Source: Candidatus Heimdallarchaeota archaeon (GTDB taxonomy: Archaea > Asgardarchaeota > Heimdallarchaeia > JABLTI01). Taken from it: a stretch of DNA of 64,000 nt. Numbering within the stretch: the stretch's first letter is position 1; the number at the start of each line of letters is the position of its first letter. A program made the translations under genes and the position numbers. The stretch is from assembly GCA_019056785.1 (NCBI GenBank), contig DXJV01000019.1:1-64000 (forward strand), given 5' to 3'. The notes under the pieces are model-generated. The model did not search any database. It saw only the letters and a program-made list of their open reading frames with translations, and had not been told where the DNA came from. Below are positions 59,698 to 64,000 of this stretch, one piece after another.

Positions 59698-60555
59698 ATG
59701 TTTGAAATTGTACGGAAGGAATGGTTACACGAAGTCATCTTCCTTATCGAAGTAAAAGCCCCGGCAATCGCCCGAAAGATAAAGGCAGGCAATTTTTTAG
59801 TCTTTCGTGCAAAAGAAGGCGGAGAACGCATTCCCATAACCGTGGCAGAATATGATAGGAAGAAAGGAACGGTCACATGCATTATTCAGGTTGTTGGAAA
59901 GTCCACAAAACTTCTTTCAACCTTTGAAAAGGGGGACTATATCCAAGATGTAGTCGGCCCCTTGGGCAAGCCAACTGAGATTAAGAAATATGGCCTCGTT
60001 GGCATTGTCTCAGGAGGATTAGGGATTCCCCTCGCAAATTTGGTCGCAAAAGAACTGCGAAACGCAGGCAACGAAGTTATTGGAATGGTTGGAGCCCGAA
60101 CAAAGGAGCTTTTAGTTTGGGAAGAAGAGATGTCAAAATATTGTACAGAAATGGATTACTGCACAGACGATGGCTCATTTGGTATGAAAGGATTTACAAC
60201 AAACTTACTCGAGAAAAAGATCAAAGAACTCGAGAAAGAAGGGAAGAAATTCGACATGATCTTCACAGTTGGACCAACAATAATGATGAAATTCATCGCA
60301 GGAATAACCAAGAAATATGGCATACACACCATTGCAAGTTTAAATCCAATCATGGTTGATGGAACCGGCATGTGTGGCGCTTGCAGGGTCACAGTTGGCG
60401 GCGAAATTAAATTCGCTTGTGTTGACGGACCGGAATTTGATGCCCATCAAGTCGATTTTGACGAGCTTTTAATGCGCCTTGGCCAATACAAAAAGTATGA
60501 GAAGGTCTCATATGACCTTTACTTGAAAGAATGCTGTGGAGGAAAACAGAAATGA
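59698..60555 (+). CDS. nfnA: NADH-dependent ferredoxin:NADP oxidoreductase subunit A (NfnA/SudB-like)
   Basis: This 285-residue protein has an N-terminal FAD domain and an NAD(P) domain (GIVSGGLGIPLANLVAKEL). A [2Fe-2S] site lies in the C-terminal GMCGACRVTVGGEIKFACVDGPEFDAHQVDF, all as in the NfnA and sulfide dehydrogenase alpha family. With NfnB it bifurcates electrons between NADPH, NAD and ferredoxin, or acts as a ferredoxin:NADP reductase. GAGGA lies before the ATG. Its stop overlaps the nfnB start (ATGA). Confidence 0.92.
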   Translation: MFEIVRKEWLHEVIFLIEVKAPAIARKIKAGNFLVFRAKEGGERIPITVAEYDRKKGTVTCIIQVVGKSTKLLSTFEKGDYIQDVVGPLGKPTEIKKYGLVGIVSGGLGIPLANLVAKELRNAGNEVIGMVGARTKELLVWEEEMSKYCTEMDYCTDDGSFGMKGFTTNLLEKKIKELEKEGKKFDMIFTVGPTIMMKFIAGITKKYGIHTIASLNPIMVDGTGMCGACRVTVGGEIKFACVDGPEFDAHQVDFDELLMRLGQYKKYEKVSYDLYLKECCGGKQK

Positions 60556-62000
60556 CTGAAGAGAAGAAAGAACGCAAACCCCAAAAGCGCTCGGATAAGA
60601 GCCCGAAAAAGACCCCAATGCGCGAACAACCCCCTGAGGAGCGCATCAAGAATTTCCTAGAGGTCCCATTTGGCTATACAGAGAAAGAAGCTTTACTTGA
60701 AGCGGAACGATGCTTACATTGTCGCCGACCCTTCTGTGTTGAAGGATGCCCTGTTGAGATTAACATTCCCGCTTTTATTTCAGCAATTCTTGATAAAGAT
60801 TATCGGCGTGGGATAAATATCATTAAAGAAACGAATGTACTTCCCGCAATTTGTGGGAGAGTATGCCCACAAGAGAATCAATGCGAAAAAGCATGCGTCA
60901 TGGGTCGTAAAGATGGTTGGGATCCTGTCGGTATTGGTCGTTTGGAACGGTTCTTAGCTGATTGGGAATATGCAAATGGCCGTGAGACACCTAAAATCGC
61001 TGAACCAACAGGGAAAAAGGTAGCAGTTATAGGTTCTGGTCCTGCTGGATTGGTTGCTGCTGCTGACCTTGCACGCTATGGTCATAAAGTCACTCTTTTT
61101 GAAAGCCTTCACAAAGGTGGTGGTGTACTTGTATATGGCATCCCTGAATTCCGGTTGCCAAAAAGCATCGTTGCAAAAGAACTCGAGACTCTAGAGCACA
61201 TGGGTGTCGAGATTAAATATGACACAGTTATAGGCTTAACCTACACAATCGACGAGCTCTTTGAGATGGGCTATGAAGCAATTTTCATTGGCACAGGAGC
61301 AGGCCTTCCAAGATACCTCGGCATTCCCGGGGAAAACTTAAAGGGCGTTTATTTTGCCAACGAATTTCTCACACGTGCAAACCTTATGGAAGCCTACAAG
61401 TTCCCAGAAAAAGCGGATACACCGATAAACGTTGGTAAAAAGGTCATCACTATTGGCGCTGGTAACGTTGCTATGGATTGTGCCCGCACGGCTCTTCGAT
61501 TAGGGGCAGAAAAATCCATGATCGTTTATAGACGGTCACTTGCAGAAGCGCCTGCACGAGAAGAAGAGATCCATCATGCGGAAGAAGAAGGAGTAGAATT
61601 CCATCTCTTGACCACACCCCTTGCCATCATGGGTGACAAGGATAACAATGTCATTGGTCTAGAATGCCAGGAATGTGAACTTGGTGAGCCCGATGAATCT
61701 GGTCGTTGCAGACCCATACCTATCGAAGATGCTTGCTTTGACCTCGAGTGTGACACATTAATTATTGCCATTGGCCAAAGACCAAACCCACTTGTTCCTC
61801 GAAATACTCCCAACCTTAAAACACACCGTTGGGGCGGCATTATTGTAAATGAAGAGACACTAGAGACATCTATCCCCGGCGTTTTTGCAGGCGGTGACAT
61901 CGTTAGCGGTGCAGCTACTGTCATTCTTGCAATGGGCGCTGGAAGAAAAGCAGCAAAATCGATGCATGAATACTTGATGAATAAAGACAAAAAGGCCTAA
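60552..62000 (+). CDS. nfnB: NfnB / glutamate synthase small-chain-like flavoprotein
   Basis: About 482 residues from the ATG at 60552, which overlaps the nfnA stop codon. N-terminal cysteine motifs CLHCRRPFCVEGCP and CGRVCPQENQCEKAC bind two [4Fe-4S] clusters. They are followed by two dinucleotide motifs (VIGSGPAGLVAAADLARYGH and ITIGAGNVAMDCARTALRLGA) and the final GVFAGGDIVSGAATV. As a stand-alone small chain with no large GltB nearby, pairing with NfnA is favoured over glutamate synthase. A hairpin terminator follows. Confidence 0.93.
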   Translation: MTEEKKERKPQKRSDKSPKKTPMREQPPEERIKNFLEVPFGYTEKEALLEAERCLHCRRPFCVEGCPVEINIPAFISAILDKDYRRGINIIKETNVLPAICGRVCPQENQCEKACVMGRKDGWDPVGIGRLERFLADWEYANGRETPKIAEPTGKKVAVIGSGPAGLVAAADLARYGHKVTLFESLHKGGGVLVYGIPEFRLPKSIVAKELETLEHMGVEIKYDTVIGLTYTIDELFEMGYEAIFIGTGAGLPRYLGIPGENLKGVYFANEFLTRANLMEAYKFPEKADTPINVGKKVITIGAGNVAMDCARTALRLGAEKSMIVYRRSLAEAPAREEEIHHAEEEGVEFHLLTTPLAIMGDKDNNVIGLECQECELGEPDESGRCRPIPIEDACFDLECDTLIIAIGQRPNPLVPRNTPNLKTHRWGGIIVNEETLETSIPGVFAGGDIVSGAATVILAMGAGRKAAKSMHEYLMNKDKKA

Positions 62001-62008
62001 GTGTGATA

Positions 62009-62054
62009 ATTGAGAATCGCACTCAATTACTCACTTCTCATTCTTTTTTTCCTC
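62009..62054 (+). terminator. Hairpin and T-tract after nfnB
   Basis: ATTGAG (62009-62014) pairs with CTCAAT (62022-62027) and is followed by a 7-T run and T-rich DNA. Confidence 0.55.
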
Positions 62055-62160
62055 ATAATAATTTCTTTACTTTTTTTAGAGAAAAAAGTATTATTCGCCC
62101 AATTAAATAAATAAAAAATGCTTTAAACAAAGATTCGAAGAGTCAATAGAGAAATGAACC

Positions 62161-63771
62161 ATGAACAACTTAATCGATACAGAATGCCTTATTATTAATC
62201 TTCTTTACCCTAACACTATTTTACTTGATTATTTACAAGACAAAGAACCTTTGCGAAGCTTCTTTCCTGGAAAAAATAAAGTCTTCCATCCAGTAACTTT
62301 TCGTGGTGATAGAGGTATCATTCAAGAGCTTTTAAGGACCTATAACGCAACGATTGAAGCCCCACAAGAGACTTTTGCTAATATTGAATTGATAACAGAA
62401 GAACATGTTAAATTTGTTATTACCGGACAACAACCAGGTTTTTTAACAGGCCCTCTTTATACGATTTACAAAACACTTTCAGCCATTAATTATGCCGAGA
62501 AATATTCCACAAAAGAACTCAAACTCATTCCTCTGTTTTGGAACGCTTCAGAAGATCATGATGTTGAAGAAGTCAACAATATCTGGATCTTGAATAAACA
62601 AAATGAAATTGTGCCTGTCGAATTAAAAGATAAAGAAATGCTGAATAAAAGTCTTGAACGGTTACCTCTAAATAAAAAATCCATTAGAAAGCTCATTGAA
62701 CACATGCTTTATTCTTTTCCAGAAACAGAATATACCAAAGACCTGTTTGATGAGTATATTAATGATGCTCTCATTAAATCTGAGAGATGGGGTGAGTTTT
62801 TCAGTCGACTTATGGTAAAACTAATGGGCAAATGGGGTTTAATTCTTTTGGAGCCAAAAATTCTGCGCCCTCATTTAACTGATTTTTTCATTGATATTAC
62901 CTCAAAAGTCCAGCATTATAATAAAATCTTCCAAAAAACAACTGATGAACTTACAAGAATGGGTTATCGCCCCAAAATGCACAAGAAAGAGAATATTGTA
63001 GGACTCTTTTATATTGATAAGGATCATTGCCGGGAGAACATTATTAAAACTGAAAAGGGGGACTTTCTTATCGGGGGGCATTGGCAGTTAACTCTTGAGG
63101 AATTAGTGGATCGCATTAAAGCTGAACCGCAGAATTTTAGCACAAATGCAATCTTCCGACCCCTTGCACAAGACTTAATGATACCAACATATATTTTCAT
63201 AGGCGGTCCGAGTGAAATTGGCTACCATATTCAATTAAAAGACCTTTATCATGAATTCTCTCTTCAACAACCGAACCTCATTTTTAGAATGGGGGCAACC
63301 ATCATTGAAAAGCACATCAACAAAATTTTAGAAAAATACTCTGTGAAAATCACAGACCTAAGCAATGTTGAAGAGCTAACCAATCGTCTTTTACGTTCAG
63401 AAAACAAAGAGTTTCTGGAGCCATATTTTACTATAATTAACGTGACACTCGAGAACTTGCAAACAAAACTCAATGAAATCAACAAAGAGCTTGCAGGGAG
63501 AGTCACTGGACGAAGTCAAATGATAAAGAAAACGCTGAAAGATATCGAAAAGATCTACATCAAATATGTTAAGGAAAATAACAAAATAATGATCAACCAA
63601 TTAGAAAAAGCACGCGCCTATCTCTTTCCATGTAATAAGCCACAAGAAAGAGTATTCAACATTTTCCAATATTTAAATAAATATTCACCAAATCTTTTAA
63701 TTTGTATTAAGAATCTCCTTGCTCAGACTGAACCATGTAATCATGTGGTGTTAAAATGTTGGATGTTTTAA
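62161..63771 (+). CDS. bshC: Bacillithiol biosynthesis cysteine-adding enzyme BshC
   Basis: This 536-residue protein would attach cysteine to glucosaminyl-malate in the last step of bacillithiol synthesis. The diagnostic block FVITGQQPGFLTGPLYTIYKTLSAINYAEK followed by LIPLFWNASEDHDVEEVNNIW is clear (about residues 83-140). ALAQ-like FRPLAQDLMIPTYIFIGGPSEIGYHIQL and a C-terminal coiled coil match the BshC length and layout. It overlaps bshB by 16 bases. BshA, needed for the first step, is not in the window. Confidence 0.93.
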   Translation: MNNLIDTECLIINLLYPNTILLDYLQDKEPLRSFFPGKNKVFHPVTFRGDRGIIQELLRTYNATIEAPQETFANIELITEEHVKFVITGQQPGFLTGPLYTIYKTLSAINYAEKYSTKELKLIPLFWNASEDHDVEEVNNIWILNKQNEIVPVELKDKEMLNKSLERLPLNKKSIRKLIEHMLYSFPETEYTKDLFDEYINDALIKSERWGEFFSRLMVKLMGKWGLILLEPKILRPHLTDFFIDITSKVQHYNKIFQKTTDELTRMGYRPKMHKKENIVGLFYIDKDHCRENIIKTEKGDFLIGGHWQLTLEELVDRIKAEPQNFSTNAIFRPLAQDLMIPTYIFIGGPSEIGYHIQLKDLYHEFSLQQPNLIFRMGATIIEKHINKILEKYSVKITDLSNVEELTNRLLRSENKEFLEPYFTIINVTLENLQTKLNEINKELAGRVTGRSQMIKKTLKDIEKIYIKYVKENNKIMINQLEKARAYLFPCNKPQERVFNIFQYLNKYSPNLLICIKNLLAQTEPCNHVVLKCWMF

Positions 63772-64000
63772 TTTTCGCCCCCCACCCAGACGATGCCGAG
63801 CTTGCTGCTGGTGGAACAATTGTGAAATTAGTGAAGCAAGATTTCAAAGTAGGAATAATTGATTTAACGGCAGGAGAAATGGGGACATATGGAACAAAAG
63901 AACAGCGATTAAAGGAAGCACAAACAGCAAAAAAAGTGCTGGGGATTAACTTGCGAGAGAATTTAGCCCTCCCAGATGGGAGGTTGCCATTTCTTAAAGA
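63756..64000 (+). CDS. bshB: LmbE-like N-acetylglucosaminyl-malate deacetylase BshB (partial, runs off window)
   Basis: Eighty-one codons are visible. The zinc motif PHPDDAELAAGG is the signature of LmbE deacetylases, and LTAGEMGTYGTKEQRLKEAQTAKKVLGI matches the BshB1 subgroup. It removes acetyl from GlcNAc-malate before BshC acts. The start ATG lies inside the bshC 3' end, suggesting translational coupling. The C-terminus lies beyond the window. Confidence 0.9.
   Translation, partial: MLDVLIFAPHPDDAELAAGGTIVKLVKQDFKVGIIDLTAGEMGTYGTKEQRLKEAQTAKKVLGINLRENLALPDGRLPFLK

What the first reader, a model, noticed from the sequence alone, without database searches (positions are those of the whole stretch)
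62161..64000. Bacillithiol genes bshC-bshB in an archaeal chromosome
BshC and BshB overlap and look functional. Bacillithiol is known mainly from Firmicutes and some other bacteria. In an archaeal context this suggests either acquisition from bacteria or a broader thiol pathway. With the odd TrxB-like enzyme and F420/NADPH enzymes in the same window, it hints at a distinct archaeal thiol-redox system.
Basis: partly seen in the sequence, partly recalled or inferred. Interest (0 to 1): 0.7.

Follow-up and report, generated by a model that had tools for sequence, protein, structure and literature searches.

The report
Complete bacillithiol operon in Asgard archaea
A Heimdallarchaeota (Asgard) genome carries all three adjacent genes needed to make bacillithiol, a glutathione-like protective small molecule known chemically only from bacteria, and about two fifths of the Asgard genomes searched carry a related gene set, so these relatives of our own cell lineage may run their redox chemistry on it.

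Summary
bshC (62161-63771) overlaps bshB by 16 bases; bshB runs past the window end, and 17 bases after its stop comes bshA (64460-65563, same contig). All three pass NCBI's equivalog cut-offs. The operon recurs in seven other MAGs of the genus (titled Candidatus Heimdallarchaeota where names are shown), with conserved flanks, so it is neither contamination nor misassembly. The window genus has a bacterial-type BshC and the C-B-A gene order seen in sampled bacteria; whole-operon transfer is likely, donor unresolved. Wider result: 94 of 228 Asgard genomes encode BshA, 105 a BshC homologue; of the 88 with both, 82 have them within 5 kb. Most carry a separate, very divergent Asgard-type BshC (100/100 clade) that keeps the family's invariant residues and adds a cysteine-rich, zinc-ribbon-like insert. 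DinB_2 (bacillithiol S-transferase superfamily) genes track BshA (26 of 27 BshA-positive genera against 10 of 35). YpdA (5 genomes) and bacilliredoxins (none) are almost absent. The window's TrxB and F420 enzymes are ordinary. A 2020 review noted BshA and BshC hits in Asgard; a 2025 survey reported no complete pathway in archaea. No bacillithiol has been measured in any archaeon.

The parts
62161..63771 (+). bshC, bacillithiol synthase (cysteine-adding enzyme), 536 aa
   Evidence: TIGR03998 386.5 bits (cut-off 265.8), PF10079 E 2e-81, PF24850 E 1e-20; AlphaFold2 model (pLDDT 86.8) matches B. subtilis BshC 4WBD, E 5e-35, TM 0.78
63756..64000 (+). bshB (BshB1-type GlcNAc-malate deacetylase), first 81 codons; the gene continues to 64442 on the contig (228 aa), followed by bshA at 64460-65563, outside the window
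   Evidence: TIGR04001 222.5 bits (cut-off 182.5), bshA TIGR03999 424 bits (cut-off 273.7); HPDD and RHPDH motifs intact; closest solved sequences 1uan, 6p2t (deacetylase 1), 2ixd
62030..62150 (+). intergenic region with a T-rich run after the upstream gltA-like gene and an A/T-rich TATA-like stretch about 50 bases before bshC (own promoter proposed)
   Evidence: read directly from the sequence; inference, not tested
60531..62000 (+). gltA-like subunit of an NfnAB/SudAB-type pair, immediately upstream; neighbour, not part of the pathway
   Evidence: TIGR01316 612.6 bits

Best explanation
A three-gene operon bshC-bshB-bshA makes bacillithiol. BshA joins GlcNAc (from UDP-GlcNAc) to L-malate, BshB removes the acetyl group, BshC adds L-cysteine to the free amine, giving Cys-GlcN-malate. 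The thiol would serve as a main low-molecular-weight thiol of the cell, and DinB_2 (BstA-type) enzymes would use it to conjugate electrophiles. In this genus the operon is of bacterial type and was probably taken in whole from a bacterium. Most other Asgard lineages with the pathway carry their own old branch of BshC, next to a true BshA and a PIG-L deacetylase. Shown: gene identity, intact motifs, genomic context, phylum-wide co-occurrence and co-location. Inferred: product, substrates, physiological role, direction of transfer.
For: All three proteins exceed NCBIfam equivalog cut-offs. Operon and flanks conserved in the genus. 37 residues invariant in 20 bacterial BshAs are kept in the window genus and in at least 90% of other Asgard BshAs, including H118, G119, D121, N204, R206, K209 and E280 of the aligned B. 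anthracis sequence. BshC residues Q91, K104, D132, E137, R291, G349, E352, Y355, Q495, E496 are shared with bacteria. The BshC model matches 4WBD. Across Asgard, BshA and BshC co-occur in 88 genomes, 82 within 5 kb. DinB_2 co-occurs with BshA: 26/27 against 10/35 genera, Fisher p 4e-8, not corrected for relatedness. A GshA match over most of the domain (PF04107) occurs in only 2 of 228 genomes. BshC tree places the window genus with bacteria; same C-B-A gene order in sampled bacteria.
Against: No bacillithiol has been measured in any archaeon (PMC7278568). YpdA is absent from the window genus and found in only 5 of 228 Asgard genomes; BrxA/B and BrxC in none, so the usual recycling system is missing. 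The transfer is not nailed down: the window genus does not nest inside any sampled bacterial group, and the BshA tree puts bacteria on one side with 89/80 support. Malate as acceptor is assumed from orthology.
Confidence: 0.8

Rival explanations
1. The operon makes a close relative of bacillithiol rather than bacillithiol itself: the same GlcN-Cys core but another acceptor than malate, or a further modified product.
For: Acceptor specificity cannot be read from orthology alone; Asgard-type BshAs (not the window's) have lost R42, H53 and Y65, invariant in sampled bacteria and lying in the N-terminal half, and all Asgard BshAs have HGSD for HGTD. f18/f19 pair BshB1 and a BshC-like protein with a GT2 enzyme instead of BshA.
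Against: The window genus keeps 19 of the 24 bacterial invariants that are not conserved Asgard-wide, R42, H53 and Y65 among them; the window BshA scores 424 bits as BshA and only 80.6 as MshA.
Confidence: 0.12
2. The genes are vertically inherited Asgard genes, not a bacterial import: the window genus kept a less diverged copy of an ancestral archaeal operon.
For: BshA of the window genus shares HGSD with all other Asgard BshAs; all Asgard rows form one side of the best tree for both proteins, although weakly (89/80 for BshA, 21/24 for BshC); a genome of a second Asgard family (G167) carries the same type at 48% identity.
Against: BshC of the genus scores 386 bits on the bacterial model, Asgard-type BshCs 33-86 in the examples scored; a 100/100 branch separates all Asgard-type BshCs from the window genus plus bacteria; it lacks the Asgard-type cysteine insert; gene order matches bacteria, not the other Asgard clusters.
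Confidence: 0.2
3. Bacterial contamination or misassembly of the contig end.
For: The window ends inside bshB; the MAG is 82.5% complete and 4.1% contaminated; bshC is lower in GC than other genes (34% against 41 +/- 2%).
Against: The contig continues 7.8 kb through bshA into Roadblock and cis-prenyltransferase genes; same synteny in other genomes of the genus from separate assemblies.
Confidence: 0.01

Closest known systems
Bacillithiol biosynthesis BshA-BshB-BshC (B. subtilis, B. anthracis, S. aureus and many other bacteria)
   Same: All three enzymes, their domain architecture, motifs and the predicted BshC fold (4WBD); equivalog scores above cut-off.
   Different: Archaeal host; the genes form one C-B-A operon, whereas bshC stands apart from bshA and bshB in the Bacillus and Paenibacillus records seen here; no YpdA, BrxA/B or BrxC in the genome.
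bshC-bshB-bshA clusters of bacteria in the phylum of L081 (titled Planctomycetota)
   Same: Same gene order and strand in many sampled genomes.
   Different: BshC only distantly alike (24% for L081) and not a supported sister of the window clade.
Asgard BshA and BshC hits reported by Rawat and Maupin-Furlow 2020 (PMC7278568)
   Same: They noted 39 InterPro hits for each in archaea, mostly Asgard, and proposed that archaea may make bacillithiol.
   Different: The passages read name no operon, no BshB, no split into two BshC types and no S-transferase link; Hammerstad et al. 2025 (PMC12719100) reported no complete pathway in archaea, using C. tepidum queries in RefSeq.
Mycothiol biosynthesis (MshA, MshB, MshC)
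   Same: Parallel logic: glycosyl transfer, deacetylation, cysteine ligation (established knowledge).
   Different: Window BshA scores 80.6 bits on MshA (cut-off 462.5); the ligase is BshC, not a CysRS-like MshC.

Membership tests
Bacillithiol biosynthesis pathway | BshA, GlcNAc-malate synthase equivalog | tested here: met
   TIGR03999 424 bits against 273.7; GT4 catalytic-type residues kept
Bacillithiol biosynthesis pathway | BshB deacetylase with metal-site motifs | tested here: met
   TIGR04001 222.5 bits against 182.5; HPDD and RHPDH present
Bacillithiol biosynthesis pathway | BshC cysteine-adding enzyme, both domains | tested here: met
   TIGR03998 386.5 bits against 265.8; PF10079 and PF24850; fold match to 4WBD
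Bacillithiol biosynthesis pathway | L-malate as the sugar acceptor and bacillithiol as the product | not testable with these tools
   needs enzyme assay and LC-MS
Bacillithiol redox cycle (YpdA, BrxA/B, BrxC) | YpdA disulfide reductase and bacilliredoxins in the same genome | tested here: not met
   none in G000; YpdA in 5/228 Asgard genomes, all in family f5; BrxA/B and BrxC in 0/228; G000 is 82.5% complete, but the other genomes of the genus lack them too
Bacillithiol S-transferases (DinB_2/STL) | DinB_2 protein with a three-histidine metal site | tested here: inconclusive
   G000 has one DinB_2 protein over cut-off (41.8 bits) with histidines in the expected regions; the histidine assignment was by eye, without alignment to BstA
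N-methyl-bacillithiol pathway (NmbA) | NmbA methyltransferase | not tested
   no model at hand; not searched
Mycothiol pathway | MshA glycosyltransferase equivalog | tested here: not met
   80.6 bits against 462.5
Bacterial-type BshC | groups with bacterial BshC rather than Asgard-type BshC | tested here: met
   100/100 branch separates Asgard-type from window genus plus bacteria; its place within or beside bacteria is unresolved

The most novel reading that the evidence does not exclude
Asgard archaea possess an old, archaeal branch of the bacillithiol pathway: a divergent BshC with a cysteine-rich, probably zinc-binding insert working with BshA and a divergent PIG-L deacetylase, making bacillithiol or a related glucosaminide thiol with another acceptor, and serving an expanded set of DinB_2 S-transferases. 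The pathway would then be ancient in Asgard, and the window genus a case of replacement by a bacterial operon.
Probability: 0.45. Interest if true: 0.75.

Novelty: new member of a known kind. Interest (0 to 1): 0.6.

Why it matters
Which small thiol Asgard archaea use is not known, and eukaryotes use glutathione. A complete operon in a heimdallarchaeal lineage and a cognate gene set in about 40% of Asgard genomes make a specific, testable prediction (bacillithiol or a close analogue) for cultures and enrichments. It contradicts a 2025 survey that found no complete pathway in archaea, and it points to a divergent BshC branch that scores far below the curated cut-off (33-86 bits against 265.8 in the examples tested), so annotation pipelines can overlook the pathway.

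Tried and rejected
Contamination and misassembly: rejected by conserved synteny in the genus and by contig continuation. A link to the window's TrxB and NpdG: rejected as ordinary enzymes without bsh linkage. GshA as a competing thiol route: PF04107 gave 97 genomes, but nearly all are short partial matches (mostly 30-65 of 291 positions); only G001 and G166 match most of the domain. Plasmid collection for bacterial relatives: only three BshC records and one BshA record. A viral-contig scan for Asgard-type BshC found none. Rooting the BshA tree with other GT4 proteins: no suitable full-length outgroup among the loci held. Structure prediction of an Asgard-type BshC was not attempted, because loci taken through the genome search are not among the sources that tool names. 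The single genome-contig scan gave only 10 loci, so the bacterial sample for the trees is mostly one phylum plus a few Bacillota, Deinococcota, Chlamydiota and Bacteroidota rows.

Full report
What is there. Both are real: bshC at 62161-63771 and bshB from 63756, overlapping by 16 bases. The window is the first 64000 bases of a 71826-base contig of a 2.87 Mb MAG. Reading on, bshB ends at 64442 and bshA follows at 64460-65563. All three exceed the NCBIfam equivalog cut-offs: BshC 386.5 against 265.8 bits, BshB1 222.5 against 182.5, BshA 424 against 273.7. The best sequence matches among solved structures are BshC (4wbd, E 1e-50), BshA (2jjm, 3mbo, 5d00) and BshB-type deacetylases (1uan, 6p2t, 2ixd). 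An AlphaFold2 model of the window BshC (pLDDT 86.8) matches 4wbd first (E 5e-35, TM 0.78), then class I aminoacyl-tRNA synthetases.

Whose genome it is. Downstream genes encode a Roadblock domain protein and a cis-prenyltransferase; the window holds ribosomal protein L11, SecY and other genes of archaeal type. Loci of the same genus in a named collection are titled Candidatus Heimdallarchaeota archaeon or Asgard group archaeon. The operon is conserved in seven other genomes of the genus, one on a 362 kb contig and one on a 295 kb contig, with the same downstream neighbours in six; in the seventh the contig ends inside bshB. Contamination and a contig-end artefact are excluded in practice.

How widespread it is. 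PF10079 (BshC) matches 105 of 228 genomes of the phylum; TIGR03999 (BshA) matches 94, 90 of them over its curated cut-off. Both occur in 88 genomes; in 82 of these the genes lie within 5 kb, in 5 they are on different contigs of fragmented assemblies, and in one they are 7.5 kb apart. Fisher p for co-occurrence is 1e-37 by genome and 4e-12 by genus; genomes and genera are related, so these are measures of association, not of independent events. A PIG-L deacetylase lies close by in most of the clusters examined.

Two kinds of BshC. The window genus (and one genome of another family, G167, on a 5.3 kb contig, 48% identity) has a bacterial-type BshC. All other Asgard BshC homologues in the tree form a separate clade (100/100) on a long branch; three examples scored 33-86 bits on bacterial-derived models. 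They are nonetheless BshC relatives: the profile of 16 of them finds 4wbd as its only significant match among solved structures (E 2e-20) and aligns with the bacterial-type profile along its length (hhalign E 9e-25). Residues Q91, G97, K104, D132, E137, R291, G349, E352, Y355, Q495 and E496 (window numbering) are kept at 89-100% in bacteria and in the Asgard type. The Asgard type adds two invariant cysteines that bacteria and the window genus lack, in most families as part of a zinc-ribbon-like pattern. I infer a metal site; it was not tested.

Origin of the window operon. BshC and BshA trees both show three groups: Asgard-type, window genus (100/100), bacteria. For BshC a 100/100 branch puts the window genus with bacteria. 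No sampled bacterial group is its sister, and in BshA the bacteria form one side with 89/80, so the window clade may branch just outside them. The order bshC-bshB-bshA on one strand is common in the sampled bacterial phylum of L081, while other Asgard clusters are arranged differently. Transfer of a whole operon from an unsampled bacterium is my preferred reading (about 0.75); vertical descent is not excluded. GC of bshC is low (34% against 41%), that of bshB and bshA closer to the other genes; this is no clear sign of a recent event.

How it likely works. By orthology: BshA makes GlcNAc-malate, BshB deacetylates it, BshC adds cysteine. The acceptor malate is assumed. The window genus keeps most bacterial BshA invariants; Asgard-type BshAs have lost R42, H53 and Y65 (numbering of the aligned B. 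anthracis sequence), so another acceptor is possible there. Likely users of the thiol are DinB_2 proteins, the superfamily that includes eight proven bacillithiol transferases of B. subtilis with a three-histidine metal site (PMC5815605). DinB_2 occurs in 85 of 94 BshA-positive genomes and in 32 of 134 others, 13 of which carry a BshC homologue without a detected BshA; by genus 26/27 against 10/35. BshA-positive genomes hold up to 11 copies. Several Asgard members shown carry an HxxxH motif near the C-terminus, as does the single copy of the window genome. Recycling: YpdA occurs in 5 genomes, all of family f5 and all with BshA; BrxA/B and BrxC in none. Oxidised thiol would have to be reduced by thioredoxin-type reductases; this is inference. 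A GshA match over most of the domain is found only in G001 and G166.

Exceptions. Families f6 and f7 have very divergent BshC-like proteins and no detected BshA, yet many DinB_2 genes; f18 and f19 members pair a BshC-like protein with a BshB1-type deacetylase (212.9 bits in L063, over cut-off) and a GT2 glycosyltransferase. They may make another glucosaminide thiol.

What was known. Rawat and Maupin-Furlow 2020 (PMC7278568) reported 39 BshA and 39 BshC hits in archaea, mostly Asgard, and only two YpdA, and suggested that archaea may make bacillithiol; none has been detected. Hammerstad et al. 2025 (PMC12719100) found no archaeon with the complete pathway. The library searches gave no paper on Asgard bacillithiol beyond these. 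So the window operon is a new member of a known kind in a new domain context; the Asgard-type BshC branch as a separate clade, its cysteine insert, the tight BshA linkage and the DinB_2 association appear undescribed in the papers searched.

Limits. MAG data; most genomes carry group codes, not names; the bacterial sample is narrow; statistics are not corrected for relatedness; no structure was predicted for Asgard-type BshC; no chemistry.

Noticed in passing
L063:7246-10574, L064, L065 (families f19, f18): Cluster of a GT2 glycosyltransferase, a BshB1-type deacetylase (over the curated cut-off in L063) and a very divergent BshC-like protein, without detected BshA in the genome: a possible different glucosaminide thiol pathway.
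   Followed up: partly
L048, L049, L050 (families f6, f7): Highly divergent BshC-like protein without detected BshA, in genomes with up to 13 DinB_2 matches.
   Followed up: partly
L046:7918-8811 and the equivalent in L045: A thioredoxin-reductase-like flavoprotein with a CAVC motif lies directly beside Asgard-type bshC in two genomes of family f5; some members of this family carry YpdA elsewhere (L090-L093).
   Followed up: partly
L068 (G214): The BshC match lies in a single 1236-aa open frame, about twice the usual length: a possible fusion or a frame artefact.
   Followed up: no
L055-L071, family f28: Conserved neighbourhood: an alpha/beta hydrolase, a phosphoglucomutase/phosphomannomutase-family gene, bshB, bshA, bshC, a class I/II aminotransferase and an orotidine-phosphate-decarboxylase-like gene; the mutase could feed UDP-GlcNAc.
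   Followed up: partly
all Asgard BshA sampled, position T120 of the aligned B. anthracis BshA: HGSD in all Asgard BshAs sampled, including the window genus, against HGTD in all sampled bacteria.
   Followed up: partly
window 59698-62000: SudB/NfnA-like and GltA/NfnB-like pair just upstream of the operon; in some relatives a NuoF/NuoG-like set stands there instead.
   Followed up: no
L040:11356-12294 (G008): An integrase-like transposase near Asgard-type bshC.
   Followed up: no
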